NCBI GenBank assembly: GCA_032622095.1
Contig: CP136068.1
Coordinates: 160,721,465-160,785,464 of the forward strand
DNA: 64,000 nucleotides
DNA from: Siphonodentalium dalli
Taxonomy: Eukaryota > Mollusca > Scaphopoda > Gadilida > Siphonodentaliidae
Reading direction: 5' to 3'
Shown: positions 20,054 through 49,877 of the stretch, in pieces
How the letters are laid out: each line of letters starts with the position of its first letter
Numbering within the stretch: position 1 is the stretch's first letter
Program-made: the position numbers and the translations under genes
Notes under the pieces: generated by a model
The model's input: the letters and a program-made list of their open reading frames with translations, nothing else
What the model was told of the DNA's origin: nothing
Database searches by the model: none

Positions 20054-20422
20054 ATGATGGCGGACGTTCTTACTTTAATAAAGACCTTGGTTTGTACGTT
20101 CCCATTTATCGTTTTTGGAACGTTCCTATTCAGTCATATTAGATGTGGAGACACCCGAGTGCTACCGGGTGGAACTGGGCAAATCGTGTCATCACCCGTC
20201 ACAGACATCCCCAATGAACAACCGAGTGAATTTACAGGAATGGGTATAATCATGCAATCAATCGTCACAAACATTCTCCGATGTGATAAGATGTGTGAGG
20301 GCCAGCCTGATTGCTCTTCTAGAGCGTTTCGTGTGGACACAAGGGAATGTCTTCTACTTAGAGATGTAATTAGTGACGTCACACAACTCAATCGGAAGTG
20401 GCAGGTCAAAAGAGCGACACAG
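20054..20422 (+). CDS. Exon 1: signal peptide and PAN/apple domain
   Basis: Starts at ATG 20054 ([10 protein letters not shown]), followed by a hydrophobic run ([16 protein letters not shown]) typical of a secretory signal. The GTG six bases upstream is in frame but is not a normal eukaryotic start. The PAN/apple signature is [17 protein letters not shown] followed by ECLLL about 10 residues on: the C-x3-C-x5-C...C spacing of short PAN modules, which bind proteins or carbohydrates. The exon ends CACAG|GTAAGA at 20422 in phase 0. The frame remains open for 31 codons past the donor, but those residues are Asp/Asn repeats, typical of intron read-through. Confidence 0.75.
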
Positions 20423-23400
20423 GTAAGAATATATGACTGTTCTAGGTGCTCCATCTCTTCCTGCGTTTCCAACGACGACGACAACAATAATAACAACAAC
20501 AGCAACAACAAATAATAAAACAGCAACAACAAATCATAAAACAACAACAACAAATTTTACGAAACTCTTTTATGGTCCCCTCTTTCGTCATTTAATTCGA
20601 ATTACAGCGTATTCTCAGTTGTTTCTTGAATTAAAACCAAAATGGTATGTATTACCTATCGACCTGGTATTTAGTCTAGGCAACAGGCAATGTAAAAACA
20701 GGCAAAATATATTGCCTAGGTAAATAAGTTCATTGGGTTACTACATTTTCTGTATGTCAATCAGTAATACAACATGCATCTTTAATCAAAATGATTTCAT
20801 GTCGCTCTTCTTTAAATAATTATATGTGACCCGCCATATCAAATCTAGTCGTAAGTCGGGATTTTTTTACCCTGTGCCAATGCATTCTCTTATATATGCG
20901 AGTGACCATAGGTCGCCTCGCATATATAAGAGAATGCATTGGCCTAAAAAAAATTAAAATTTTAATAGTTTGTTCTTGTATTCTTTAACAATTTTATAAT
21001 TTCACCCATACAGAGCCCCAGACAAACATGAGCAGACGACACTCTTCTATATGCTTCTATATATGCGTGGGGCTTCCTGCAGGGTAATGGATGTTTTTTT
21101 ATTTTATGTCCTAAAAATTGTAAGAAACATTTATTTAAAAAACATGATAAAAATTGTTAGGCCAATGCATTCTCTTATATATGCGAGGTGACCTATAGTC
21201 GACTCGCATATATAAGAGAATGCATTGGCACAGGGTAAACAAAATCCCGACTTCCGACTGGATTTGATATGGCGGGTCACATATTGTCGTACAATATAGC
21301 ACCCATGATGAAAGATGGTGGTGAAATTATTCATCTGTATATTAAGTAAGAACAATTAATAATTTGGAGGGCAGTAACTCGAGTGAATTAGATTTAAAGG
21401 GGTACTGTACACTAAATCCGGCCATTTATGGGACCATCTCCTCAACAGAATATATGCAACAAATGAATGAATTTGAGCCACGGATTATTGCAAAAATACA
21501 CTTATGTGCTCTATGAATGATGCAAACAACATGGTAATTATAAAGAAAATGAATAAATGGCTGGAGTCATAAATTCATTTTCATTATAATTACCATGTTG
21601 TTTGCATCGTTCATAGAGCACATGGGTGTATTTTGCACTAATCCATGGCTCAAATTCATTCATTTGTTGCATTTATTCTGCTGAGTATAAAAGGAGATGG
21701 TCCCATAAAAATGGCCGGATTTAGTGTGCAGTACCCCTTTAAGCATACATTATTGTCTATATAATTTATTTGATAACTAATAATCATAAAATAGCATTAT
21801 AAGGTTATTATTGATTTAAATTATAATATTGTACCACATTTGCCTAAATTGCCTAGGTTTTTGCCCAGGCACATTTCTCACACCTACGCTAATATCTTGC
21901 CTAGACATCTTTTCCTAAATATCCAGGACTGCGACCATATGTTAATGGTGGGTCTCAGAATTGTCATATTTGGTCCCCGTGTAACATAACCCAGCGATTA
22001 GAGAGCGTTTATGCTTAAAGAGCGTTACGTTTTCAGAGATAATTCAGAATACTATATTTAATTCAAATTAAACGATGAAAAAGAGGGTTCAATATTTGGC
22101 ACCAATATTGTGGGGACATACAGGTTGGGGAGGGGTGATAATCCCATGCTCCCCCTCACGCTATGTCCATGGCTGAATCGGGGACGTGACTATAGCGTGT
22201 CTTTGGCGATATGAGGTGAAATTACCGACAGAGTGGTTTGTGGGGTTTCACTCCCAACATTGGCTGAATTTGTCACACTCACCGGTTACCCAGGTCCTCG
22301 ACATTGTGATAAGGTTGGAGAGAATTGTGATAAAGTTAACCATGCTAAGCAAATCTCACAATATGAAAGCGATTAACAATGACTGAGAGAAATACGGTTC
22401 ATGTTTGGCAAGTGACAGGCCTCATTGGATATACATTAATACATATTAGTACTGGAGGTGGTCATTTTGATTGCAACAATTAATATTTGATTACTATACA
22501 GTGTTCATGGAATTGTATTAACCTGAGTAACTTTATCACAATATTCCCCAACCTGAGTAACTTTATCACAATATTCCCCAACCCGAGTAACTTTATCACA
22601 ATTTCCCAACAATCTGGTTAACTATCACAATCTCTCCCTCAACATGGGTAACTTTATCACAATCTCCCGTCAACCTGGATAACTTTATCACAATCTCCCC
22701 TCAACCTGAGTAACTTTATCACAATTCCCCCACAACCTGGTTAACTATCACAATCTCCCCTCAACCTGGGTAACTTTATCACAATCTCCCCTCAACCTGG
22801 GTAAATTTATCACAATCTCCCCTCAAACTGAGTAACTTTATCACAATTTCCCAACAACCTGGTTAACTATCACAATCTCCCCTCAACCTGGGTAACTTTA
22901 TCACAATCTCCCCTCAACCTGGGTAACTTTATCACAATCTCCCCTCAACCTGGGTAAATTTATCACAATCTCCCCTCAAACTGAGTAACTTTATCACAAT
23001 TTCCCAACAACCTGGTTAACTATCACAATCTCCCCTCAACCTGGGTAACTTTATCACAATCTCCCCTCAACCTGGGTAACTTTATCACAATTTCCCAACA
23101 ACCTGGTTAACTATCACAATCTCCCCTCAACCTGGGTAACTTTATCACAATTCCCCACAACCTGGTAACTTTATCAGAAACCCCAACCTGGGTAACTTTA
23201 TATCACAATTTCAGCTACGTAACGTTATCACCAAAAACAAACAGATGAGAGTGACCAATTCACCCCAATCTGGGTAACTTTATCACAACTTCCCCACAAC
23301 CTGGGTAACTTTATCACAATCTCCCCTGAACCTGGGTAACTGTATCACAATCTCCCCACAACCTGGGCAACTTTATCACAATTTCATTACCAAGCTGCGT

Positions 23401-26400
23401 AACTTTATCACACAAAAAAAACGGTGATAGTGAATAATTCACCTTTTAACTTTAGCCAAACTTTCAATAGTTGGAATTTGTTCATACCTGTCACCACTTG
23501 GATATTTCAAGGCCAAATATAGGTTGAAATTGTTCTGATAGGTTGATTTCAATCTTGTACTTCATGTGAATTTTATTTTGTTAGATTAAGTAGAAAATTT
23601 TCCTACTTTTTGTCATCTGTTTGGACTGAAATGGCCAAGGGTTGGACATTTTCCGACTATATATAGATGGTATTAGATTGGAAATTTCCAACAGTTGACA
23701 TGGAAACTTCAGATACCAATTAGAAATTTTCAATGGAGCCCTTCAGTTTTCTCTAATAGCTGTGATTACTAATATAAGTGAACAGAATCCTTTATTTTGA
23801 CTCCATCAAATTTTGGGGGAAATAGGTTAACACCATGCGAATCGAAACATTTTCAACGTACATGTATTTTAATCTGAAATTGATAACTAATATGTCAGGC
23901 ACGGAAATTGACGGAATGTCCAACTGTTGAACATTTCGGCCAATGTTGGGGAGTCCCTGCACGCGTGTAATATGAAACATGGCCATGCACTTTAAATGAC
24001 ACACGGGGGAACACATGGAAGTAATAAAATATTTAGCGGAATACCATTGTAGCATTAATGAGCTGGAACCGCTTCTAAACACAGGTCGTTTCCATTACAG
24101 CTTCCTATGCATAACATAATCATATAACAAGTTATCCAATCTGTTGTCGATCGAATGGAATCATCAACCTTTGTGTCCCGCAGTGTTACATATCATTAAT
24201 ACTTGATCCGAGCTCGATCGAATGGAATTAGGAACCATTATGTCTCACCCTGTTGACAATCATTAAGGGGGAGACGCACGTTTTCCATAAATCACAGTAA
24301 ATCCAGCCAGAAATGGCAAGTGATTTTCAACAAAGAATTTCTCTGGATCTATCTGGTGAAAATTCTTGAATTTTACATATGATAATTTTCATTATATATA
24401 GAATCAGAGCAATTATAAAGAGACAATAACAATAATGGATTTTAATACATTTGAGAGGTTGAAAATATTTGTACCGAGAACTGCCAGAAAAATTTATAAT
24501 TTAAAACAACATGTCAACCATCAAATAGCTTATTGTCTTGACTCCATGAGAGGAGGCTTCATTTGTATCATAATGTTGAGTTAGCTTTTTAATTGCATAT
24601 TATAGCATCATACCCCATGTATTATAATGAAGAATAAAGCAGTCACAAATATGCCAGCCCAATGAAAACAAATGTTCAAATGTGGTGCTGTCCACTCAAG
24701 CAGGGAGCAATCAACAGAAATTAGGCCACAGAGTTAAGAGATATGGTGGTCAGATTTAACTTGGTTATGAACCCATGACCCAGAACTCAATTGAGCCCAA
24801 TTTTTCAATGACCAACAAGCATGGTATGAAAATTCTCAATAATAAAAAATTATTTATGGTAGTTGTCTTTCTGAATGAAAATAATCGTTTAATTTCATGA
24901 ATCAAGAAAAATTAAGTCTCCTCTCATGATCTTCAGGTATGATATCATGTATATATGAAATGCACTTTCGAAAAAAATCTGTTTTACAGTAGTTCTCGGT
25001 ACCTGAACACAGTGAAATTTTAAAGATTTTTCATGCCATAAAAGTAAAGTAAATGAGATTATAATAACCAAATGTCCAATGGTTCTTATGTATGGTACCA
25101 CAATAATCTCTTGTACAAAATTTCACAAAGATATTCCTGATAGATTTAGAGAAAATACATTTTGAAATACCAGGAAATTTTGGCAAAACGTGCGTCTGAC
25201 CCTTAATATAACTTGATCATGACGTTCATACTGCATTAACATGGGAACATATTTTCCGATACAGCTATAAAATTATATACACGTTTAGTACAAACACTGC
25301 ATCCACCAGGCCATATTTAAAAATATATACACGTTTGGTACAAATACTGCATCCACCAGGCCATATTCAAAAATATCATTGTTTTCCCTGACCGTACCCA
25401 AAATATCAAGAATGAGTTGGTATGTACAAAACGAAGGTAATTTATTTTGTTCTAATTATATGTAATCACTGGACAAGATGGGTTTCATCCTATATTTACC
25501 AAATACACATTGACGGCGAGTAGTTATCTGAGGAAATGTTCACATCATAAGTTCAACAACGTTTGATGAACTTATTAGCTGAACATTTCCATCCAATAAA
25601 TAAGAGCCCTGCTTATTTTTGTTTTTTTGTTTTTATGAAAACCCATCCAGATGAATAATAGACCATTCTAATGTATACTGTTATAACTGAGGAGGATAAT
25701 CAATTTAGTATAGAAAGGGTAAATAACTGTTGAGATTACATAAATATGATCTATTGACATCTATATAATAGATAGCATAAAAGAAGTCACGTTGCGTTTG
25801 AAGCTATGATTTCTGCGAGCGAAGTTATAGAGTGGCGATTCGTGGCGTGATCTGTCACCGATCCTTACGATGTTTAAATCTTTAAAATAGCTTCTTCTGG
25901 AACAAACACTCTTAAAATTGTTAACTAGCAGACGTAGATTGGATCTCCTGATTTAAAAGTTAGATCTTGTGAGCGCTGCCAGCCCTAACATTTTAAACCG
26001 GTTTACGCTGTTAGCGCATAACATAGTAAGGATCGGGTGTTAGCGCTGCCAGGGCCTAACAATTTAAACAGGTTTACGCTGGTAGCGCATATGAAATGTA
26101 AGGAGCGGATGGATATATATATGTATAGCGCCCTCCTTGATAATCCGGTTTCGAATGTAAAGTCACTTGCAGGTTTCGCGGTATTCAGAGACCCGGCAGC
26201 CATCTTAAATATAAATAATAAATAAATAACAGTTTTGTATAGCGTGAAATCCACCGAAGTGCTCTAAAACGCTTGACATGTTAAACATAAAATACAATTG
26301 CAAATATAAGACATAATTATGGACATCAACAAAAATGTAGAACTATATAAGTGAGACGTTATTAAGAAATACAAAAGCGCATAATTACAAATCGAAAAAA

Positions 26401-29400
26401 ATATTAAAAAGTTACTGGTAAATTGGGGGTGATAACATGCTAAAAAATGCTAACAGCGAAAAAAGGGGGTAAAATGGCGAACGGGTAACAAGCTAAAAAT
26501 AACATGAAAAGGGGGGTAAAATGGGGAAAGATCGGGGAAACGAGTAAAATTGAAACGAAAAATATTGATGACACTAAGGTGCTTAATTAGTGATCAAAAC
26601 AGTATAGAAGATAGAATATTATCAACAAAGAGTATTTGCATTAGTATTTTTTTTTTTGTTGTTGGTATTCACGAGTTAAGTTCATGTGGTGTTTTTCTTG
26701 GCTGATGAGCATGACGTTAGCTTTCACCTGGTATAGCCTGGAACACCCTAGCTGATCAAGTCTACTCGCTACTGTGCTTACGGGACTTCTTCTTCGGTTT
26801 TAATTCCAAGTCTTTGAATGCTTCTTGGAATAAGAATGCGCGTGACGTTAGCTTTCACCTGGTATAGCCTGGAACCCCCTAGCTGATCAAGTCTACTCGC
26901 TAATGTGCTTACGGGACTTCTTCTTCGGTTGTAATTCCAAGTATTTGAATGCTTCTTGGAATAAGAATGTTTTTTGAAGTCGTCATAGCAGCCGTTCATG
27001 CGTAAATTACGGTCTTGGATCGCGGGTTGTGTTTCGCGGTATTCAGTCGCCCCGGCAGCCATCTTGGATCGCGGGTAGTGTTTCGCGGTATTCAGACGCC
27101 CCGGCAGCCATCTTGGATCGCGGGTGGTGTTTCGCGGTATTCAGACGCCCCGGCAGCCATCTTGGATCGCGGGTGCTGTTTTGCGGTATTCAGACGCCCC
27201 GGCAGCCATCTTGGATCGCGGGTAGTGTTTCGCGGTATTCAGACAACCCGGCAGCCATCTTGGATCGCGGGTGGTGTTTCGCGGTATTCAGACAACCCGG
27301 CAGCCATCTTGGATCGCGGGTGCTGTTTCGCGGTATTCAGACAACCCGGCAGCCATCTCGGATCGCAGGTGGTGTTTCGCGGTATTATTGGTGTTGTTGT
27401 TGGAGTTGTTGTTGTTTTTTTGGTGTTGTATTAAGACTGTGTTGCTGTTAGATTTAAAGATTATGACGATGACGAAGATGATGATGGTTATTATCATATT
27501 ATGATAATGAAGATGACTCTAATGTCAAATTTAAATTGATGATAATGATGATAAAAACGATGATGAACATGCGCCATGTCTATCGGGAGATCACTGTATA
27601 TTGTGTATATAATGAATTACGTTCCTGCTCTCCATCTGTATATACTTTCCATTTCTCGATATCATTGTCATTTTGATCAAAGAATAAAGCATGTTATGAA
27701 TTGAGACGATCCGGCAGCCATCTTGGATCGCGGGTGGTGTTTCGCCGTATTCAGAGAACTAGGACATGTTTCTGATTTCACAACACCCTTTATTTGTCAA
27801 ATTAACATTTTGTTATCGAATAATTAATACATGCCAGGTGTAAACTGTAAAGAACTCCCAAATGTTGAACTGTTGGATATACTACGTTAGTTCGAGTGTT
27901 CAATGGTCCGAAGTTTCAATGGTCCGAGGGTTCAATAGTCCGATGGTTCAATAGTCCGAGGGTTCAATAGTTCGATGGTTCAATGGTCCGAGGGTTAAAT
28001 GGTCCGAGGGTTCAATGGTCTGAGGGTTCAATAGTCCGAGTGTTCAATGGTCCGAGGGTTCAATAGTCCGAGGGTTCAATGGTCCGATGGTTCAATGGTC
28101 CGAGGATGCAATGGTCCGAGGTTTCAATAGTCCGAGGGTTCAATGGTCCGAGGGTTCAATGGTCCGAGGGTTCAATAGTCCGATGGTTCAATAGTTTGAT
28201 GGTTCAATAGTCCGAGGGTGCAATAGTCCGATGGTGCAATAGTCCGAGGGTTCAATAGTCCGAGGGTTCAATGGTCAAAGGGTTCAATAGTCCGATGGTT
28301 CAATAATCCGAGGGTTCAATGGTCCGAGGGTTCAATAGTCCGATGGTTCAATAGTTTGATGGTTCAATAGTCCCAGGGTGCAATAGTCCGATGGTTCATT
28401 AGTCCGAGGGTTCAACGGTCCGATGGTTCAATAGTCCGAGGGTTCGGCTCACAATCTGGGAATAGCTCAGACCAGCGTAGCAGGGAATTGAACTTTGCAT
28501 TGCAGTGTGTGTCTATCGTTATCATTGCGGCATCATTGTCTGTTTGTTTATTACAGAAGCCTGCCAGCGAATGTAAACACAACGAATTGAAACGACCGAC
28601 GATCTCTGGAGATTCAACATGCTCGGCGATAACAAGTAAGAACACTGCACGAAAAAACAGCTATCATGTTATAACAAGAACAAAAATGCATGCATGCATG
28701 CATGCATGCATCATATCAGTATAACGGGACACGATGCAAATGCTCCGTATCTAGTTTGTCTTTAATGCAAGACATTATGTCAATGTACTACATTGTATAA
28801 TAATTATCATATGTGCCAGGGAACGGTTTATGTCAAGTACGTTTATGTTTGAGTTCTTCCTGTTTTGAATTTGGTAAAAGATAACGTGTTTCAGTCTGTA
28901 TTAAATCTACACATTCTGTGAGAACAATTACCCAAAGTCGATCCTTACTGGCTTGGTGGCGCAGATAGTGTCCAAAGTGATTGAATTTCGATACAAAGTG
29001 GTACCCAAACTTACCGTACATACAACTCACAATGTCATCAAGAGCTCCAAATCAGTGGAGTCTTACCAAAGACGAGACCGTCAATTCGTTCGTGAGCCGG
29101 CGAAGTAATTTACAGTATACCCTACTCTTGACATAAACTTTGAACCTTTTCTACTGAAGGAGCAGCCTTGCTCAAAAAGTCCAAAGCTACACCACTGCGT
29201 GGATTGATGGATGACCCTGATAATGATGAGCACCCTTGAACTGCGGAACAGAAAGTCACCCTACTCGAGTTGATGCTTGGCCAAAGCAAACTTCTGTACA
29301 TATATTGCAAGAAATACGATCATAAAGAATTCTACATCAACATAATCGCTGCGGAAAATGATCACAGCACATTACGGCTTTGCACATTTATCGATCTGGA

Positions 29401-41400: not shown

Positions 41401-44400
41401 GCAGTGAAAAATCAAAATCCTTTCACAAGTCCCAACCTACATATCACATTGACATTGGCGACTTGTATTTCTTCAGAGCGATGGTGATAAAAACACTGGA
41501 CGACATCGTTACCTTGTTGTTTCCACATATGACAATTGGTGTAACATCCGCAAGTTTGTCGGCTCACATCGCCGTGCCCAGCAGAGATTTATCTGGCCAT
41601 CGGAGATCAACTCGTCAAAGGCACATACCGAAGTATCTTTCTGACTATTCTCCATAAAGACCCGTGTACCCACGAGGGCGAATAATACATATATATATAT
41701 GACTCGCTACGTCATGGTATGTGTCACTAATCACTTTGTGTGCAATTTAGCAGTTTTATACTCAATAACTCGTGAATTATGTAGTCCATTACCAAAAAAG
41801 GAAGAAAATAAACTGCGCCAATGTGTTAGGATATCAGTATAACGGGAAACGATGCTCCGTATCTAGTTTGTCTTTAATGCAAGACACTATGTCAATGTAC
41901 TACTGTGGCAGAACCTACGTTGGTCCTCCGGGCTTCACATTGTGTACTTTTTTGTTTAGTCACGGCAACTCATGGAACCATAGATTGTTGATTTCTTTAT
42001 TTGAACACAGCTTCGCCAGACATTACTAGATAGCCGGTGCTGGCTTCTCATGCGTTCTTTCTTTGGGATCAGTTAATTAGAATATATCGAAATTGTATTG
42101 GAACTTAGACGACTGAACGATGAGAGAAAATCGCTCAACGCTTATATTAGAAAATGGTGACCTGCTTTTCCAAAATCATGTGACGATGTTTTTTGCCAAG
42201 TTGTCAACGGCTCGTCACTAAGGGTAGTTTTCATATATCATGACCAGTGCAGTGTACCAAAAATATAAACTGTATACAACTGCACTGGTTTGACTGCATG
42301 TTTCCGTGAGAACCAGCATCGAATTATCTCGTCGGCATGCTAAGTACGACTGTCCGACTAACAAATCATGCCTGTTTTTCGTGCATCGTATGATGAATTA
42401 ATTTCTCTTGCAATGGCACAGCCAGGGATGTGGCAAAGGCATGGGCGCACATCGTTCTGTTACACTTATCATATGTGCCAATGCACGGTTTATGCTAAGT
42501 AAGTTTATGTCTGAATACTTCGTGGTTTGAATTTGGTAACAGATAAACGCTTTTCAATCTGTATTCAATCTACGCATTCTGTGAGAACAATTATCCAAAG
42601 TCGATCCTTACTGGCGCATGAATTATTTTACAAAGAATTAATCACGTACTATAGTTGGGAAAATAGTATACCTTTATCAATCGAATTGTATAAGTGTACA
42701 TCTTCTACTTTAAGAATTATCTTGTAGTAACGTACTCTCATATTTTAGATTACTATAAATCAAATTAACCAAATTGAGATTTTGCAATTTGTTATTATAG
42801 TTATTAAAATTATGTATATACTGGGGAGCTACTGGTTAAGCTCCTCAGTATATTTTGGCAAATATATATATAACCTATCACTTTAAAAGAGTTCTCCATT
42901 GGGACAATTATACCAGGTTTGTTGTTCGGCAACTTACAATTTACGCTTATAATTGCAACAAAATACGTTGATTGCTTATAATTACTCTCCGGCACATTAA
43001 TTTTAACTTATTAGAAATAATTATCGCGAAGAAAATGCTTGATAAAAGAAGTTCAAGGTCGCTCAATTCAAGAGCGACTCGGATTTAAATAGAATGAACT
43101 GAGGCAGAGGAACAACTAACAATAATTATATCATTAAAAATCACTTTTCGATTTGGAAAATACAAATTTGATAATAATCATATCATATGAGTTTGACGTG
43201 AATCCGCCTATAAATGCCTTGCCATTCTGAAATATTATGAAGAAGTCTCGAATTTTACATTGAAGCCATAGAAAATTGAATCTGAAGTTTGCCGATACTC
43301 AGTAGAAGGTTACCCACCTAAATGTTACACGTGACGCCAGTTATCACCACAGCCATGCTATTTGGCAACCATTTGGAGATAAATTATTGGTTGTCATCTT
43401 TGAACACCTTGATCACTTCACGAGAAAGAATTGATAACCAAGGACACACCACACACACTCCAGGTAAATTGTCCCCGCGAATGTTAACCCTTCCCGCATT
43501 CCTAAGCCGGTGACTCGACCACATAGTTATCGAGAAATACAACAAGCAACACGTAACTTAGGCGTCGTTAGGTCTCGTTCAATCAGAATCGATGTAACTA
43601 AGGCGTCGTTAGGTCTCGTTCAATCCGAATCGAGGTAACTAAGGCGTCGTTAGGTCTCGTTCAATCATAATCGAGGTAACTATGGCGTCGTTATGTCTCG
43701 TTCAATCAGAATTGAGGAAACTGAAAGAGAAAAATGGAGGTGTAATGGAGTGTTGTGCGTCCCAGTGAATACATTATCTAGACACACATCATATATGTAT
43801 ATTCTGAGAGAAGATACCATTTTTGTTTATTTTTGGAATTATTATATATGGCTCTCGGTTTATACATCTCGGTATATACATCGCTATAATATCGCGATAT
43901 CTATATTTTAGATGAAGATACGACCAAAACGAACACCGACCCCACCAGTATAGCTGTCGACACCAGCACTACAACGACAACAACAACAACAACAGCAACA
44001 CCACCACCACCACCACCACCACCACCAACAGCAGCAACAACAATTACAACATCAACACCACCGCCACCACCAACAACAACAGCAGCAACAACGACGACGA
44101 CAACAACAACAACAACAATTACAACACCATCACCACCACCACCAGCAACAACAACAGCAACAACGACAACAACCACAATTGCAAAACCACCACCGACAAC
44201 GACAGCAGCAACGACAGCAACAACACCACCACCACCGACAACAGCAACAACAACAACAATTACAACACCACCACCACCACCACCACCACCAACAACAACA
44301 GCAACAACAACAACAGCAGCAGCAACAACAACAACAGCAACACCACCACCACCAGCGCCAGCAACAACAACAGCAACAATTACAACACAACCACTACCAC

Positions 44401-44562
44401 CATCAGCAACAACAACAGCAACAATTACAACACCACCACTACCACCATCAGCAACAACAGCAGCATCAATAACAACAACAATAATTACAACAACACCACC
44501 ACCAACAACAGCAGCAGCAGCAACAACGACAAAAACAACAATTACAATACCACCACCAACAC

Positions 44563-44594
<32 letters not shown>

Positions 44595-47500
44595 TCAACA
44601 ACAGCCATCTCCAATACCAGCAGCACAACAACAGCAACAGCAGCAACAACAACAACGACTACAACAACAACAGCAGCCACCATCTCTGCGACAGAAACAA
44701 CACAAGTACCGAGTGTTTCAGGTAGGTGTACAGATTTACATGTACATGGTTCTAGACTGTATATGTGTTCATATATATTTAAATATTGTCTGAAACATGC
44801 TCCCATATGGAGCCTTTATTCGGTGGTGTACTGGTGTAGCGGCCTGCGGCCACTACAAAAAATGGCCAGCGGACCATATGTGCGTTTCGCGCGCATGTTG
44901 ATCTTTTAAACAATTTTATTACAAATGAAAAAACAAAAATTATTATTTATTTGTTTTTAAATAATAATTTTAACAAAATTACGACGTTATGTCGCCGAGG
45001 TACCCCGAGTCACCGCACCAAATTTGGTTGAAATTGATTCAGGGGTCTGGGAGAACAATTGTCCAATATAGATCGATTGGCATATTCAGATTTTTTTGCA
45101 TACAGCGTGAGATGTGGGTGAATCGCGCGATTCGTGGTAGTGCAGGCCTGGCCGTTTGAAAACTGCATGAGAGCTACAAAAATAGATCTCCTTAAATCAT
45201 CACAGGGAGCCATACCTCCAGGAACGATAGCAAACAACTTATATAAATTGATATGTAAATTGATGAATAGTTTCCCTTATGATCACATATAAAATGGCGG
45301 CAATAATTTTACTTACTTCTTGAAATGTTAATTGAGAGGAGAAAAATAGCCGCCCTCCTTATTTTGATTTTAGGAGGCGATTTGGAGAAATTGCCCTCCT
45401 TAAATGGGCATACTTCTGAAGTCGAATATGTTTATTTACTCATTTGGCCACCGACAGTGCGAACTATGCTGCGGAATATCTTTATTTACTCATTCCAGTT
45501 TTGGTCCGATTTATCCTCGTCACGTGTAAATCATATAATGGCGCGTGATTTATACAATAATAATGAGTGTTCTAGCTCCGGTTGATAACCCTGCAAGTCC
45601 GCATGATTGTGTTTATAATGCGTCTGATCCAAGGGTGGCGGGGAGTGTATTCAGTTAAATATTTAGACGGCGTGCGACGCGGTTGAATTGCGCGACAATA
45701 AGGGTCAATCCACACCTGGCGCGACCTCGCGATTTTTACGGCCGTTTTCTGTCGTCCGTAGCGGTTCAAAGCGCGCGATTTTTATATTCACACCGACCGC
45801 GACTGGATCGCTTCGTCGCGCGCGATGGTTTGGGTGCATCATTTACAGGAAGGTCACAACAATAAGCGAGATCACTGGGTCGCGGCCGTATTGGATTCAT
45901 CCAGCTCCGTTCCGTGGTTTAAGAGATTCTTGCAGCCCCGGATCCGTGGTTTTAGTGCTACTGGTCACATTTTTGGAGTAGCATTTCCATATATGGAGCT
46001 TTTGAATTATTCATGACTTCCATATATGGAATGCTACTCCATAACTTGACCTGTAGCACTAACACCACGTAACCTGACCTGGTTGATCCAATATGGCCGC
46101 GAGTTAGTGACGGGGCGCATGGTGTCTAAAGCTGCTTTCACAGACCTGCGACTGACGCATGCGGGCAACGCTCTTTAAAAACACTTCTTCGAATATTTCC
46201 GTTATTTCGTCAACAACTCTTCTTCAAATATCTCCGTTATTTCGTCAAAAACACTTCTTCTCATACAAATCACCGTTATTTAGAAAATTATTATTATTTA
46301 TAGAGTTATTGCCCTTCATATTAAATATGAAGCTGACATGCAGGATTAGCAAAACATGTCTTCGTTTAGTGGACAATCCCGAGCTCGCGTGCCACGCGTG
46401 GTTGGATTGTCCATTTATTAATGACCATTTTAGGTACCGATTGTCCATTTATAAGTCCTTGAAGAATTGCCTGACATGTAAACACATGTCCCAATACAGG
46501 GCTGGTTTGTTGAACTTAAGAACACATACATGTAATATTCATTGCTACTTGTTTTTGCTTGTTTTACGCCATTTCAGGTTACAATACACCAAATACAAAT
46601 TAGTAGAGTGATTTCCCCTGGGACCCCCAAGCTAGGATCAGCATAAAAAAAATTATGGCAGCTGAATGGTCAATGATACATGGATGAAAAGTTAACGAAA
46701 AAATGCACAAATGTGTTTCCCGTCGAGAAACATCAAATATAACCACATGGTAAATGGTTATGGCTGTGCAAGTGGCGACTAATTTATGGGAGGTGTTTGT
46801 GTTTTTTTCGATGTCATTTTTTTTCTCAATTTTAAGGGTAGTGTGACGTTTGTCAAGCTCCCGTGTGATCTACCATGTTAACAAGTACTTTTGTGCACAT
46901 TTCTGTGTGTCTAAAAGGACGTTCTTTAATATCAAATACTCGTGCAGGGTGAAAGCTTTGCAGCGAATATAGGCCAGCGGGATATGATAACACTGAGGCC
47001 TATGTAAATCATTTGGTGTATTGTAACCTTCAAAGAGAGAGACATCTCTCGATCAGTCGCATCGGGGCCGCGCGAATGTCTTCGCCGAATTTCAGAAATG
47101 AAGTAATTCGGTAAGCGCCATTGCGCCCTTGTGTTATCGTCTTGTGATTGCACGCGATACGCTCCAGCCGCGCGCGGTACGATATGCGTATGGTGTATGC
47201 TGTAACACACATTGACGTCGTGCATATGGTGGATTGACAGGAACTGAAGATATTTTTCTCCAAAATATGTATACAGATATATTTTTATCTATTGTCAATA
47301 TTGAATGACAAGGATATATTCGTGTGATCATGTGAGTTTTCAGTATAATATAACTGTAGTCTATGTATATGTATTCGTTGTATTAATTATGTTAATAAGA
47401 AGTGTGCAGTGAATTGGACTAGTAAATAGTAAACCCTAACCATAATCCTAACCATAACACTAACCATAACCCTAACCGTAACTCTTACTCTAACCCTGAC

Positions 47501-49877
47501 TCTAACACAAACCCTAACCCTTACCAAGCCCTAGCTTAAACCCTATTAGTATCCATAACCCGAACACAATCACGCTTACCCAAACCCTAGCCCTAACCCT
47601 GATCATAATCATAACCATAACATTAACCTTGATCCTAACTCTCACCCTTTATATATCCAAACCCTATAATAACCCTTCAACTAGCTTTAGCACTAAACCC
47701 TGACCTAACCGCAATCCCAAACCCTAGCTAATCATAATTGTAACTCTATCCCTAACCCTGAACATAATTATAATCCTAGCTTAGCTTCAAACCTAAAAAC
47801 AAACCCTATCATCTCTAAACCTAACCTAACTCTAACTCAAGACCTCAACCTAATTATAATCCTAACCCTAATCCTAATCCTAATCATAACCTAACCTAAC
47901 CTAACCCCTACCTAACACACACCAACCTAACCTAACATAGCATAACCTTAACCCTAACCAAAAACTAACCCTGACGACAACCCTAACCATAACGATAATC
48001 ATAACCTAACCATAACGATAACCATAAGCACAACGATAACCCTAACCCTAACAATAACCCCAACCCTAACCCAAACCAAACCCTACCATACCCAACACTT
48101 ACCATAACGATAACTATAACCTTAACCATACCCTAACCCTGAACACAACTTAACCCCAGCCATAACGTAACCCTAACCATAACCCTAACATTAAACCTAA
48201 CGTAACCCTAACGTAACCATAGCTAACTTAACACTCACCATAACCTAACCCTGACCCTAGCCATACCGTAACCCTAATATAACCTAACCCTAACGTAACT
48301 CTAACCCTAACCAACCCTAGGTTCCTAACCCATACCATAACCATAACCTAAACCTAACCAAACGCTAACCCTAACCTAACCATGACGTAAACCTAACCAT
48401 AACCCTAATGTAAACATAACCATAACGATAACACTAACGTAAACCTAACCATAACGATAACACTAACCCTAACCATAACCCTAACCTAACCATAACGTAA
48501 ACCTAACCCTAACCCTAACGTAAACATAACCCTAACCCTAACGTAAACATAAACCTAACCATAACCATAACGTAAACCTAACCCTAACCATAACGTAAAC
48601 ATAACCATAACGATAACACTAACCCTAACCATAACCCTAACCTAACCTTAACCATAACCAAACTCTAACCCTTACCATAACCTAACCCTAACGTAAACAT
48701 AACCATAACGATAACACTAACCCTAACCATAACCCTAACCTAACCTTAACCATAACCAAACTCTAACCCTTACCATAACCTAACCCTAACGTAAACATAA
48801 CCATAACGATAACACTAACCCTAATCATAACCCTAACCTAACCTTAACCATAACCAAACTCTAACCCTTACCATAACCTAACTCTAACGTAAAGTTGTAA
48901 ACCTAACCATAACACTAGCCATAACCTAAGCATAATCCTAACCATAACGATAACACTAACCATAACCCTAACCGAACCCCTAACCCTAACCAAACGCTAA
49001 CCATAACCCTAGCCATAACCATAGCATAACCCTGACCCTAATCCTAAGTAACTCTAACCATAATCCTAACCTAACCCCAACCCTAACCAAACGCTAACCC
49101 TAACCATAACCATAACCGTAACCCTAACCGTAACCAGAACCATAACCCTAACCATAACCCTAAATCTTACCCCAATCTTACCCTCATTATTACGCATCGT
49201 ATTATTGATTCACTACTGTGTCCATTGCAGACTGTCTAACGTGGTTCAAAGCAGGTAATACGACCGATGGCGTATACAGAATCAGTCCCTATTACGGTTC
49301 ACCTGAAATGAATGTTGTCTGTGACATGACGACAAACGGTGGAGGTTGGACGGTGTTTCAACAGAGAAGAGATGAATCGGTCGATTTCTATCGGAACTGG
49401 AGCGAATACGTCAGCGGATTCGGAAATGTAACTCTAAGTGGAAACTACTGGCTAGGTTTGAGAAATATACGCAGATTAGGTCGCACCTCAGATCTCTATG
49501 TTAAAATGCGAGAGCCGAACGGGAAGAGTACGTATGCAAAGTATTCAAGCTTCCACATAGCAAACAGTACGAACATGTACACTCTCAATGTGGCCGGGTA
49601 TACTGGTACCGCTGGAGATTCAATGAGTTACAGCAATGGGAAGAAATTTAGCACTCCCGATAGAGACTTTACCCCACGAGGGTGTACAACATCAGACAAG
49701 TGTACAGAATATCGCCATGGCAGCTGGTGGTATGACTGCTGCTCCCTTTCGAATTTGAACGGACGGTACCTCAATACGGCCGATGATATATATAGGCAGT
49801 CGGGGATGTTATGGCATCAAACCAGAGGTTACACTTCCATGACGTTCACACGTATGATGCTCCGACGACGTGTGTGA
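20054..49877 (+). CDS. PAN/apple - Thr-rich - fibrinogen-domain secreted lectin (four exons)
   Basis: Model: exons 20054-20422, 28557-28635, 43912-44721 and 49231-49877. Phases agree at each junction (0, then 1, then 1). The total is 1905 nt, giving 634 residues plus stop. Order of parts: a hydrophobic signal peptide (residues about 8-30), PAN/apple-like cysteines (about 75-110), a 26-residue linker with two cysteines, about 265 residues of Thr/Pro/Ala mucin-like stalk, then a fibrinogen-related domain of about 215 residues. Such proteins (FREPs, ficolin-like lectins) bind microbial or acetylated surface sugars outside the cell. The stalk should be O-glycosylated. Introns of 8.1, 15.3 and 4.5 kb are packed with transposons. 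I saw no reliable promoter; a TATAAAAG near 19594 is too far upstream to call. Exon 2 and the joining of exons 1 and 3 are inferred from splice sites and phase, not from transcripts. Confidence 0.72.
20825..21281. mobile_element. TA-flanked MITE with a hairpin at each end, copy 1
   Basis: 457 bp. Terminal inverted repeat TGTGACCCGCCATATCAAAT, flanked by TA on both sides (20823-20824, 21282-21283), as in Tc1/mariner-type elements. Each end also carries its own hairpin: CATTCTCTTATATATGCGAG, a short loop containing GACC, then the exact inverse. The 25-bp arm therefore appears four times. Non-coding. A second copy is at 59022-59481. It lies in intron 1 of the lectin gene. Confidence 0.85.
21398..21738. 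mobile_element. TTAA-flanked foldback MITE
   Basis: 341 bp and nearly a complete palindrome. The left end AGGGGTACTGTACACTAAAT has its inverse at the right, with TTAA on both sides (21394-21397 and 21739-21742). The arms remain complementary to the centre near 21560 (for example CATGGTAATTATAA against its inverse). It could fold into one long hairpin if transcribed; it lies in intron 1. Confidence 0.8.
22278..22345 (-). repeat. Inverted stub of the 31-bp minisatellite
   Basis: Contains the reverse complements of two repeat units (GATAAAGTTAACC and GGTTACCCAGG) in orientation opposite to the array beginning at 22521. It is separated from the array by about 175 bp of unique sequence. Confidence 0.6.
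22521..23415. repeat. 31-bp minisatellite
   Basis: About 28 units of AACCTGGGTAACTTTATCAC followed by AATCTCCCCTC. Variant units lacking bases (GGTTAACTATCACAATCTCC) recur at regular intervals, showing a higher-order repeat of several units. The last units are looser and include AAAACAAAC interruptions. Located in intron 1. Confidence 0.92.
24267..25202. mobile_element. TTAA-flanked non-autonomous DNA element, 0.94 kb
   Basis: The left end GGGGGAGACGCACGTTTT pairs with the right end AAAACGTGCGTCTGACCC (two mismatches). TTAA stands outside both ends (24263-24266, 25203-25206). The interior is AT-rich with no coding frame. Located in intron 1. Confidence 0.7.
25260..25375. repeat. 53-bp tandem duplication
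   Basis: TATATACACGTTTRGTACAA followed by AYACTGCATCCACCAGGCC occurs twice head to tail with few differences. Confidence 0.8.
25971..26090. repeat. Two-copy tandem duplication, unit about 68 bp
   Basis: AGCGCTGCCAG, CCTAACA, TTTAAAC, GGTTTACGCTG and TAGCGCAT recur in the same order in both copies. Confidence 0.7.
26709..26970. repeat. Two-copy tandem duplication, unit about 130 bp
   Basis: TGACGTTAGCTTTCACCTGG through GGAATAAGAATG is present twice, starting near 26710 and 26840, with only a few base changes. Confidence 0.85.
27020..27390. repeat. 49-bp minisatellite (CGGCAGCCATCTTGGATCGC)
   Basis: About seven and a half copies of a 49-bp unit with TTTCGCGGTATTCAG and CGGCAGCCATCTTGGATCGC. 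Because 49 is one more than a multiple of three, all three forward frames stay open with rotated versions of one peptide, so these frames are not genes. Single diverged units lie at about 26168-26210 and 27708-27755. Confidence 0.92.
27890..28446. repeat. 16-bp minisatellite (GGTTCAATAGTCCGAG)
   Basis: About 35 copies of a 16-bp unit with AGTCCGAG/GGTCCGAG/AGTCCGAT variants. It ends 110 bp before exon 2 of the lectin gene, so it borders that exon's splice acceptor region. Confidence 0.92.
28557..28635 (+). CDS. Exon 2: 26-residue linker of the lectin gene
   Basis: A 79-nt exon bounded by a strong acceptor (TGTCTGTTTGTTTATTACAG) and a good donor (A|GTAAGA). It begins in phase 0 and ends in phase 1, exactly what is needed to bridge exon 1 (ending phase 0) and exon 3 (starting phase 1). 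The peptide starts [14 protein letters not shown] and carries two cysteines that could pair with each other or with the PAN cysteines. It has no recognised domain. The inference rests on splice sites and phase, and chance agreement cannot be excluded. Confidence 0.6.
28713..28952 (+). repeat. 5' LTR, internally deleted
   Basis: Matches 41831-41905 and then 42465-42615 of the right LTR; the roughly 560 bp between these parts is missing here. A (GCAT)n run abuts its start, so the exact 5' edge is uncertain. Confidence 0.75.
28954..28964 (+). other. Primer-binding site of the LTR retrotransposon
   Basis: TGGTGGCGCAG begins one to two bases after the last LTR-homologous base. TGG is the complement of the tRNA CCA end; the tRNA is not identified. 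Confidence 0.65.
29032..30022 (+). pseudogene. Decayed gag of the LTR retrotransposon
   Basis: ATG at 29032 opens a frame with [12 protein letters not shown] and NLQYT, which stops after 34 codons. The same protein continues through shifted frames: LMLGQ near 29270, a good 102-codon stretch at 29270-29578 ([33 protein letters not shown]), [14 protein letters not shown] near 29640, and a Cys/His-containing part ending [14 protein letters not shown] near 29960-29990 that looks like the remains of a nucleic-acid-binding knuckle. A 27-bp triplication (ACATATCCGCCACGTCCAG) expands it at 29756-29835. Gag would package the element RNA. The pogo-like element at 30025 interrupts it, and its tail resumes at 35204. 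Confidence 0.75.
30795..33252 (-). pseudogene. LINE ORF2: endonuclease and truncated reverse transcriptase
   Basis: Starts at ATG 33252. Endonuclease motifs in order: HININGL (N of motif I), DETKL (catalytic E), YNPP, GDYNAKH, LDIAIAT and SSDHLPL (catalytic D-H). A frameshift at the GGGG stretch near 32870 moves the frame from the first motifs to the rest. After KQVKAAVK (32034) the linker leads abruptly to RT motif A ([13 protein letters not shown], about 31750), so the RT fingers are deleted. Motif B (LRAGTPQG, about 31570) is in another frame and is followed by a stop. Motif C (QFADDLGLW) and the thumb ([12 protein letters not shown]) are intact in the frame ending at 30795. It nicks target DNA and copies the element RNA when functional; here it is dead. 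Confidence 0.88.
33478..34652 (-). pseudogene. LINE ORF1: coiled coil, zinc-knuckle RNA-binding protein
   Basis: ATG at 34652. The first part ([20 protein letters not shown]) has heptad-like Leu/Ile spacing suited to a coiled coil. A frameshift before about 34490 leads into a 338-codon frame with a basic, Ser/Thr-rich region, an RRM/PRE-like part ([15 protein letters not shown]), and two knuckles at the end: C-x2-C-x4-H-x4-C ([14 protein letters not shown]) and C-x2-C-x3-H-x4-C ([13 protein letters not shown]). It would coat the element RNA. A further frame (33427-33182) with ordinary coding composition probably holds its C-terminus after another shift. Confidence 0.85.
35605..36693. mobile_element. 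Hairpin-bearing insert in the RT region, about 1.1 kb
   Basis: Breaks the RT sequence between KTIV and STCVLGW. The flanking hexamers TTGTTA (35599-35604) and TTGCTA (36694-36699) look like a target duplication with one change. The left part has GTCGCCCGCTGACCCGGGAG followed by ACATTG, and related phrases recur inverted at the right end. No terminal inverted repeats at the exact ends and no coding capacity; the class is unknown. Confidence 0.5.
36537..36687. repeat. 151-bp near-perfect palindrome
   Basis: From ACAGTTGTTGCCC to GGGCGACAACTGT, with arms containing GGGAGACATTGAGATTTGTC and CACCCGCTCGAGAAC and a 3-base centre (TTC) near 36612. Only a few mismatches. Confidence 0.85.
37487..37974. 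mobile_element. 488-bp insert with 12-bp direct repeats
   Basis: AAACTCAGTTCG occurs at 37475-37486 and again at 37975-37986. Removing the insert and one copy rejoins the pol reading frame (AWK, a stop, then TQFECHD). No inverted termini; the right end is AT-rich with an AATAAA. A 12-bp duplication suggests target-primed retrotransposition (SINE-like or truncated LINE), but no RNA polymerase III promoter box was recognised. Confidence 0.55.
38158..39522. mobile_element. 1.37-kb inverted-repeat element with 9-bp target duplication
   Basis: The termini TAGTCCAAGTCTTCTTGTAC and onward pair over about 46 bp with the right end (39477-39522) with three mismatches. TACTTCGCG stands immediately outside both ends (38149-38157, 39523-39531). 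Removing the element and one copy restores the pol frame from VVLR to GVRL. Nine-base duplications are usual for Mutator-like elements; no transposase is visible inside. Confidence 0.75.
39872..41076. repeat. 22-bp minisatellite inside the integrase sequence
   Basis: About 53 units of TTAGATGGACCGCTTTCTGT followed by TA, with YGC/CAC variants and a few short or hybrid units. The first unit (CCATTAGATGGACCGTTTCT) reads as the conserved integrase words RPLDGPF, and integrase sequence resumes right after the array, so the array grew from the coding sequence itself. Confidence 0.92.
41794..41808 (+). other. Polypurine tract of the LTR retrotransposon
   Basis: AAAAAAGGAAGAAAA lies just upstream of the right LTR start (about 41822-41831). 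Confidence 0.55.
41822..42615 (+). repeat. 3' LTR (about 0.79 kb)
   Basis: Begins TGTGTTAGGATATCAG and ends CCTTACTGGC. The ends match the left LTR; the middle 560 bp are absent there. A 4-6-bp target duplication could not be confirmed because the left edge is obscured by (GCAT)n. Confidence 0.75.
42616..43911. other. Remainder of intron 2
   Basis: AT-rich, no gene seen. Contains the 41-bp tandem repeat at 43551-43720 and ends at the exon 3 acceptor (CTATATTTTAG). Confidence 0.55.
43551..43720. repeat. 41-bp tandem repeat, four units
   Basis: GTAACTAAGGCGTCGTTAGG followed by TCTCGTTCAATCAGAATCGAG, four times with few substitutions, ending about 190 bp before exon 3. Confidence 0.9.
43912..44721 (+). 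CDS. Exon 3: Thr/Pro/Ala-rich mucin-like stalk
   Basis: An 810-nt exon, phase 1 at both ends, so it could be skipped or lengthened by triplets without breaking the frame. It starts (after AG at 43910-43911) with [19 protein letters not shown] and then becomes runs of Thr, Pro and Ala, ending VPSVS before G|GTAGGT. The DNA is CAA/CCA/GCA triplets, so the forward Gln/His frame and the reverse Val/Cys frames are open too. Only the Thr frame joins the fibrinogen exon correctly: its last base plus AC makes the Asp of DCLTW. Such stalks are extended and O-glycosylated. The array is likely to vary in length between alleles. Confidence 0.78.
45881..46101. repeat. 221-bp foldback
   Basis: CGCGGCCGTATTGGAT at the left is matched inverted (ATCCAATATGGCCGCG) at the right. 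The inner arms GTGGTTTTAGTGCTAC and TGGAGTAGCATTCCATATATGG pair with their inverses around a centre near 46008. It is probably the core of a MITE whose outer ends are degraded. Confidence 0.7.
46165..46270. repeat. About 42-bp tandem repeat, two to three units
   Basis: CACTTCTTC, AATATYTCCGTTATTTCGTC and AACA recur head to tail. Confidence 0.7.
47428..49180 (+). repeat. Telomere-like degenerate CCCTAA block in intron 3
   Basis: 1.75 kb of CCCTAACC, CCATAACC, CCTAACGTAA and CGATAACACTAACC variants. Exact CCCTAA hexamers are mixed with CATAAC and CGTAAC variants. Longer units of roughly 120-130 bp repeat between about 48420 and 48880. The C-rich strand is the sense strand of the lectin gene. 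The block ends about 50 bp before the exon 4 acceptor. Confidence 0.9.
49231..49877 (+). CDS. Exon 4: fibrinogen-related C-terminal domain (FReD)
   Basis: Acceptor TGTCCATTGCAG at 49230; the exon starts in phase 1 and ends TGA at 49877. Hallmarks in order: [38 protein letters not shown], the [11 protein letters not shown] loop, [38 protein letters not shown] and the C-terminal TRMMLRR. This is a full-length domain of about 215 residues. It recognises acetylated or other sugars in ficolins, tachylectins and FREPs. Odd points: the calcium loop keeps DRD but then reads FTPRGC instead of the usual Asp/Asn run. Two extra cysteines (RGCTTSDKC) and a doubled Cys (YDCC) suggest an altered disulfide layout. 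Confidence 0.92.

What the first reader, a model, noticed from the sequence alone, without database searches (positions are those of the whole stretch)
20054..49877. A four-exon PAN - mucin stalk - fibrinogen-domain lectin gene across 30 kb
The exons were found separately (PAN exon, 79-nt linker, Thr-rich exon, FReD exon). Phases 0/0, 1/1, 1/1 all match and the coding total is exactly 635 codons. A PAN/apple module on a Thr-rich stalk with a fibrinogen domain is an unusual FREP-like architecture and a candidate innate-immune or adhesive lectin.
Basis: partly seen in the sequence, partly recalled or inferred. Interest (0 to 1): 0.78.

Follow-up and report, generated by a model that had tools for sequence, protein, structure and literature searches.

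The report
PAN–mucin stalk–fibrinogen-domain lectin gene
An unidentified animal carries a likely four-exon gene for a secreted or membrane-anchored lectin (PAN module, threonine-rich stalk, fibrinogen head), perhaps made by putting a new sugar-binding head on a PAN module whose relatives are mostly followed by a different lectin-like domain.

Summary
All four exons are at the stated coordinates with GT/AG borders, phases 0/0, 1/1, 1/1, 634 aa plus stop. Pfam gives PAN_1 just above cut-off (24.7 vs 21.4 bits) and Fibrinogen_C strongly (182.6 bits). Paralogues test the joins. PAN to linker is strong: 12 of 12 linker hits (query and window included) lie within 80 kb downstream of a same-strand PAN exon. 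The join to stalk and FReD is likely but unproven. For it: a separate compact gene at C9:71.20 Mb has PAN, Thr-rich exon and FReD within about 5 kb in the same phases, and a C3 array repeats PAN–FReD seven times. Against it: of the 11 other linkers, 6 are followed within 8 kb by a C-type-lectin-like exon and none within 80 kb by a listed FReD. Best reading: one gene, made by module exchange at a phase-1 intron. PAN plus FReD is already reported in snails (PMC7588048, passages read), so this is a new variant of a known kind. No transcript was available.

The parts
20054..20422 (+). Exon 1: hydrophobic leader (signal peptide or signal anchor) and PAN domain; donor phase 0
   Evidence: PAN_1 24.7 bits vs cut-off 21.4; GT donor; paralogous PAN exons align up to the exon end and show phase-0 donors
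28557..28635 (+). Exon 2: 26-aa two-Cys linker, phase 0 in, phase 1 out
   Evidence: linker family, 6 aligned, invariant S4 C6 K7 E10 P14 T15 C22; 12 of 12 genome hits within 80 kb downstream of a same-strand PAN hit
43912..44721 (+). Exon 3: 270-codon Thr/Pro/Ala-rich mucin-like stalk, phase 1 in, phase 1 out
   Evidence: open frame with AG/GT borders; Thr/Ser-rich frames with splice-like borders upstream of FReD at C9:71.20, C3:257.94 and C7:33.89
49231..49877 (+). Exon 4: fibrinogen C-terminal domain (FReD) and stop codon
   Evidence: Fibrinogen_C 182.6 bits; up to 59% identity to other FReD exons of the genome
30795..34581 (-). Retroelement-like open frames (LINE-type, named by eye from the translation) inside intron 2; not part of the gene product
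   Evidence: minus-strand frames of 394, 293 and 367 aa

Best explanation
One gene encodes a secreted or type II membrane-anchored lectin: leader – PAN – two-Cys linker – Thr/Pro-rich stalk – FReD. It most likely arose when a phase-1 stalk+FReD module came to stand behind a PAN–linker front end of the kind that elsewhere in this genome is often followed by C-type-lectin-like exons. Inferred working: PAN and linker mediate protein or glycan contact or oligomerisation; the O-glycosylated stalk holds the head away from the surface or multimer core; the FReD binds acetylated or other glycans of microbes or self, with calcium, in innate recognition or adhesion. Shown: exons, phases, domains and the PAN–linker family. 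Supported but not shown: the linker–stalk–FReD joins. Inferred: glycosylation, ligand and immune role.
For: Exons, borders and phases; domains. PAN-to-linker order in 12 of 12 linker hits within 80 kb. The linker ends at phase 1 in 5 of 5 paralogues read, and all 8 C-type-lectin-like exons read begin at phase 1, as the window's stalk does. No such exon was found in the window (tblastn; profile, 0 hits in 2195 frames); the nearest genome hit listed is 313 kb downstream of the FReD. A separate compact gene at C9:71.20 has PAN (phase 0) – Cys-rich plus Thr-rich exon (0 to 1) – FReD (1) on one strand. In the C3 array each of 7 PAN exons is followed by 2 same-strand FReD exons before the next PAN; 1 of 3 units looked at shows a Ser/Thr-rich frame with phase-1 borders before its FReD. 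A scan that recovers 22 of 25 PAN first exons finds 2 phase-1 signal-exon candidates between linker and stalk and 0 between stalk and FReD.
Against: No RNA, protein or orthologue evidence. Of the 11 other linkers 0 have a listed FReD within 80 kb downstream, 6 have a C-type-lectin-like exon within 8 kb, 5 have neither; absence of such an exon in the window is therefore weak evidence by itself. Outside the C3 array 2 of 164 FReD hits have a PAN within 40 kb upstream, the window's being one. PAN exons, some with C-type-lectin-like exons after them, lie on the same strand around the window (C8:159.4-161.5 Mb), so a FReD gene could have landed there. No stalk was recognised in the 4-11 kb read upstream of 10 other FReD exons. 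The stalk lies in a triplet repeat. Intron 2 is 15.3 kb with a retroelement.
Confidence: 0.68

Rival explanations
1. Two genes: a PAN–linker gene that has lost its C-type-lectin-like exons or has exons not recognised here, and a separate stalk–FReD gene with its own first exon.
For: In the linker family 6 of 11 others are followed by a C-type-lectin-like exon and 0 of 11 by a listed FReD. 166 of 179 listed FReD hits have no listed same-strand PAN within 40 kb upstream. PAN exons are common around the window.
Against: No C-type-lectin-like exon found in the window. Only two phase-1 signal-exon candidates: one antisense to the retroelement (donor 8.9 bits) and one with a 6.6-bit donor. Matching phases. 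Separate PAN–stalk–FReD order at C9 and in one C3 unit.
Confidence: 0.22
2. The stalk is not an exon (simple repeat), and linker and FReD are joined directly or through another exon; both ends are phase 1, so the frame would hold.
For: The stalk is a triplet array. Linker end and FReD start are both phase 1. Stalks were recognised before 3 FReD exons besides the window's, not before 10 others looked at.
Against: Thr/Ser-rich frames with splice borders precede FReD at C9, C3 and C7. The middle base of the stalk codons is C in 233 of 269 and the first base varies most, as a Thr/Pro/Ala/Ser tract would show.
Confidence: 0.06
3. Decaying locus: exons are intact, but introns filled with repeats no longer permit a proper transcript.
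For: A retroelement and large tandem arrays lie in the introns.
Against: All four exons are open with intact splice sites. PAN and linker lie 5-78 kb apart in paralogues too.
Confidence: 0.04

Closest known systems
PAN/Apple-containing FREP Bg179 of Biomphalaria glabrata and PAN-bearing FReDs of Lottia gigantea (PMC7588048, passages read)
   Same: PAN/Apple and fibrinogen domains in one predicted protein
   Different: Bg179 also has an IgSF domain and an interceding region; no Thr-rich stalk is mentioned in the passages read. Details of the Lottia proteins were not seen.
FREPs (IgSF + FBG) and FReMs (EGF-like + FBG) of snails (as defined in PMC7588048, passage)
   Same: N-terminal module followed by a C-terminal FBG
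   Different: No IgSF domain found; PAN and a Thr-rich stalk stand in that place
Tenascins, FIBCD1, ficolins, tachylectin-5A (head domain)
   Same: Head homologous by sequence: tenascin-R 8fn9 E 5.1e-42, FIBCD1 4m7f 6.7e-42, ficolin-3 2j5z 1.6e-38, TL5A 1jc9 3.9e-31
   Different: PAN and stalk instead of their N-terminal parts (recalled). The window has Ser where tenascin-R has His after the second Cys of the loop (the role of this His is recalled).
PAN–linker genes followed by C-type-lectin-like exons, same genome (three at C8:48, C5:45.5, C5:228.4, C5:229.4)
   Same: Homologous leader–PAN exon and two-Cys linker exon
   Different: A C-type-lectin-like exon follows the linker within 8 kb instead of stalk and FReD

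Membership tests
Fibrinogen-related domain (PF00147) proteins | Fibrinogen_C domain above the curated cut-off | tested here: met
   182.6 bits vs 22
PAN/Apple domain proteins | PAN_1 (PF00024) above the curated cut-off | tested here: met
   24.7 vs 21.4 bits, marginal; five paralogous exons score 21.8-29.1
FREP (sensu stricto) | one or two N-terminal IgSF domains | tested here: not met
   No IgSF match in the PAN, stalk or FReD exons at E up to 1; the 26-aa linker is too short
Ficolin | N-terminal collagen-like region | tested here: not met
   By inspection, the predicted protein has PAN, linker and a Thr/Pro/Ala stalk in that place
Mucin-like stalk | Ser/Thr/Pro-rich tract that is O-glycosylated | tested here: inconclusive
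   197 of 270 residues are Thr, Pro or Ser; glycosylation is not testable here
Calcium-binding FReD lectin | Asp-x-Asp calcium site and sugar binding | tested here: inconclusive
   DRD is present in FSTPDRDF; its role is recalled; binding not testable
PAN–linker–C-type-lectin-like family of this genome | C-type-lectin-like exon after the linker | tested here: not met
   none found in the window; none listed within 80 kb after the window's linker
Single transcribed gene with four exons | spliced transcript across three junctions | not testable with these tools
   no RNA data

The most novel reading that the evidence does not exclude
In this animal a leader–PAN–linker front end ending in a phase-1 donor serves as an exchangeable chassis: C-type-lectin-like heads in one set of genes, stalk plus FReD head in the window gene. 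PAN–FReD lectins were thus assembled at least twice independently within one genome, giving a combinatorial recognition repertoire built by exon shuffling.
Probability: 0.45. Interest if true: 0.55.

Novelty: new variant of a known kind. Interest (0 to 1): 0.42.

Why it matters
If the joins are real, two large lectin families (C-type-lectin-like and fibrinogen-domain) share one interchangeable PAN front end in one genome. That would make exon shuffling as a source of invertebrate recognition diversity directly testable with long-read RNA. It also adds a stalked PAN form to the fibrinogen-domain lectins.

Tried and rejected
Structure prediction of the FReD from one sequence failed (mean pLDDT 30), so no fold search was made. 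PDB search with the PAN exon gave nothing significant (best E 0.87). Species: not identified; molluscan haemocyanin PF14830 gave no match, which the tool says does not show absence; paper searches did not settle it (one search returned 0 papers, a listing). A C7 pair (PAN 131.009, FReD 130.959, same strand, 50 kb) was considered as a further PAN–FReD case; no linker or stalk was recognised in the parts read, so it is left out; its PAN falls on the window's side of the tree. Paper searches for the architecture; two searches returned 0 papers. Of all papers listed only PMC7588048 was opened (passages). I claim no absence from print.

Limits and rows: genome lists show at most 150 scored candidates, so 'no listed hit' is not absence. 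For the co-location test the PAN rows (132 + 149) merged to 195 places; FReD rows were the 150 plus 29 that I picked by eye as new, 179 places, typed into. In one search the 20 hits, 80 and 140 were not all typed: 22 rows were chosen by me, those near linkers and the window among them. The PAN tree used 25 rows and the FReD tree 31, chosen by me; one near-duplicate C3 PAN exon (L041) and the cut copy in L007 were left out of the PAN tree. Names such as C7_33.89_mucin and PANup are my labels. In the stalk survey 'no stalk' is my judgement: a few frames at 33-35% Ser/Thr/Pro in L013, L014, L016, L020 and L076 were not counted as stalks.

Odds changed on re-check: the best explanation went from 0.75 to 0.68 and the novel case from 0.5 to 0.45, because one search shows that 0 of 11 other linkers have a listed FReD and 5 of 11 have no listed C-type-lectin-like exon either, and because only 1 of 3 C3 units looked at showed a stalk. 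The rivals were rescaled so that the four add to 1: two genes 0.18 to 0.22, stalk not an exon 0.15 to 0.06, decaying locus 0.05 to 0.04.

Full report
WHAT WAS CHECKED. The window lies in an unnamed 2.23-Gb genome held as 9 contigs, at C8:160721465-160785464. The four exons are exactly as reported: 369 + 79 + 810 + 647 nt, GT/AG borders, phases 0/0, 1/1, 1/1, 634 aa plus stop. Exon 1 carries a hydrophobic leader and a marginal but over-threshold PAN_1 match; exon 4 is a near-complete Fibrinogen_C; exon 3 is 128 Thr, 55 Pro, 41 Ala and 14 Ser of 270. The protein has five N-glycosylation sequons, four of them in the FReD.

PAN TO LINKER. There is no RNA, so I asked whether the same order recurs in the genome. 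The 26-aa linker exon finds 6 places, and a paralogous linker finds 12, the query and the window included; 8 of the 12 have E above 0.05. All 12 lie downstream, on the same strand, of a PAN hit or 23: 11 within 40 kb, 12 within 80 kb; random positions within 1 Mb of a PAN hit do so in 4.3% and 7.8% of draws. Six aligned linkers share both cysteines and a PT motif. The linker ends at phase 1 in 5 of 5 paralogues read. This join is close to certain.

WHAT FOLLOWS THE LINKER ELSEWHERE. In the two paralogues whose downstream DNA I read, exons follow that I took by eye for C-type-lectin halves. The label is only weakly backed by search: Pfam Lectin_C reaches 13.5 bits (cut-off 22.6, E 0.13) on one N-half and nothing on the others; the C-half's 15 PDB matches at E up to 10 are all C-type lectins, but the best E is 0.12; the other N-half finds no significant match. 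Genome searches with two N-half exons place one within 8 kb downstream, same strand, of 6 of the 11 other linkers (two of these are the queries' own loci); 5 have none within 80 kb among the rows typed, and none of the 11 has a listed FReD within 80 kb. The window is the reverse: no C-type-lectin-like exon found and a FReD 20.7 kb after the linker. The profile finds its control exon on C5, which was in its training set, so its power for divergent exons is unknown.

OTHER PAN–STALK–FReD ORDERS. At C9:71.20 Mb (minus strand) a PAN exon (PAN_1 24.1 bits), a Cys-rich plus Thr-rich exon and a FReD exon sit within about 5 kb, with phases 0/0 and 1/1. On C3:257.88-258.55 Mb seven PAN exons alternate with pairs of same-strand FReD exons, 25-78 kb from PAN to FReD, plus one FReD on the other strand. 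In the one C3 unit read from PAN to FReD, a Ser/Thr-rich frame (L012 3717-4247, phase-1 borders) lies about 4 kb before the FReD, but the exon that should link it to the phase-0 PAN donor was not found; in two other C3 units the last 7-8 kb before the FReD showed no stalk. At C7:33.89 Mb a Thr-rich frame with splice-like borders also precedes a FReD by about 4 kb. In all, stalks were recognised before 3 FReD exons besides the window's and not before 10: L013, L014, L015, L016, L017, L018, L020, L022, L023 and C7:130.96 (L024 with L076).

TREES. On 25 PAN exons a branch with 96/90 support parts the window PAN and the four PANs paired with C-type-lectin-like exons from the C3 and C9 PANs that precede FReD; the C3+C9 group itself has 87/80 and the C9 row is a very long branch. 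The window's closest place inside its side is not firmly resolved. On 31 FReD exons, eight C3 FReDs form a group (98/95) without the window's; the window FReD's own place is unresolved, its nearest by path being C4:218.927, 59% identical. I read this as independent assembly, not descent from the C3 or C9 genes; a shared origin is not excluded, since the PAN tree rests on 78 columns.

TWO-GENE RIVAL. A scan for ATG + hydrophobic leader + donor recovers 22 of 25 PAN first exons at phase 0. At phase 1 it finds two candidates between linker and stalk, one antisense to the retroelement (8.9 bits) and one at 6.6 bits, and none between stalk and FReD; the reverse-strand controls give 0 and 3, and the whole window 2 on the plus and 8 on the minus strand. 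The scan misses short or odd leaders, and its donor weights come from donors of the same families, so it lowers the rival without excluding it. The local setting favours the rival somewhat: more distant PAN exons, and C-type-lectin-like exons at C8:161.08-161.44 Mb, lie on the same strand downstream.

STALK. It lies in an ACA-type triplet array, so its open frame is weak evidence. The middle codon base is C in 233 of 269 while the first varies most, as a Thr/Pro/Ala/Ser tract would give; a neutral triplet array could do the same. Because linker end and FReD start are both phase 1, transcripts that skip the stalk would stay in frame.

MECHANISM (inferred). The leader could be a signal peptide or a signal anchor; no predictor was run. 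The FReD head is homologous to those of tenascin-R, FIBCD1, ficolins and tachylectin-5A and keeps an Asp-x-Asp motif at the place of the calcium site (role recalled). A stalk of 270 mostly Thr/Pro/Ala residues would be extended and probably O-glycosylated. The likely role is innate recognition or adhesion; nothing here tests it.

COMPARISON WITH WHAT IS KNOWN. PMC7588048 (passages read) reports a PAN/Apple domain in one B. glabrata FREP (Bg179) and says PAN/Apple is known from some Lottia gigantea FReDs. PAN plus FReD is thus known. The stalked form and the shared PAN–linker front end did not show in the listings of my narrow searches, which is no proof that they are unpublished. Verdict: a real and well-read gene model, a new variant of a known kind, with an interesting module-exchange reading that RNA can settle.

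Noticed in passing
window 49231-49877 (FReD residues 152 and 170) and 30 other FReD exons of G000: Two extra cysteines in the loop around the presumed calcium site are each present in 26 of 31 aligned rows; by eye the same 5 rows lack both, which suggests an extra disulfide next to the presumed sugar pocket.
   Followed up: partly
G000 C3:257.88-258.55 Mb: Seven PAN exons alternate with pairs of FReD exons; PAN exons about 514-516 kb apart are 99% identical or score equally, so a recent segmental duplication or an assembly duplicate. Why two FReD exons follow each PAN is unexplained.
   Followed up: partly
window 47432-49163: A degenerate TAACCC-like (telomere-like) array ends 68 bp before the FReD exon.
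   Followed up: no
window 22520-23412, 27888-28445, 39860-41069: Large tandem arrays (31-bp, 16-bp and 22-bp units) in the introns of the gene.
   Followed up: no
G000, whole genome: The FReD family is very large: 150 of 150 scored PF00147 candidates are over the cut-off, from 677 first-look candidates.
   Followed up: no
G000 C8:159.4-161.5 Mb, around the window: A same-strand series of further, more distant PAN exons flanks the window, with C-type-lectin-like exons among them at C8:161.08, 161.32 and 161.43 Mb.
   Followed up: partly
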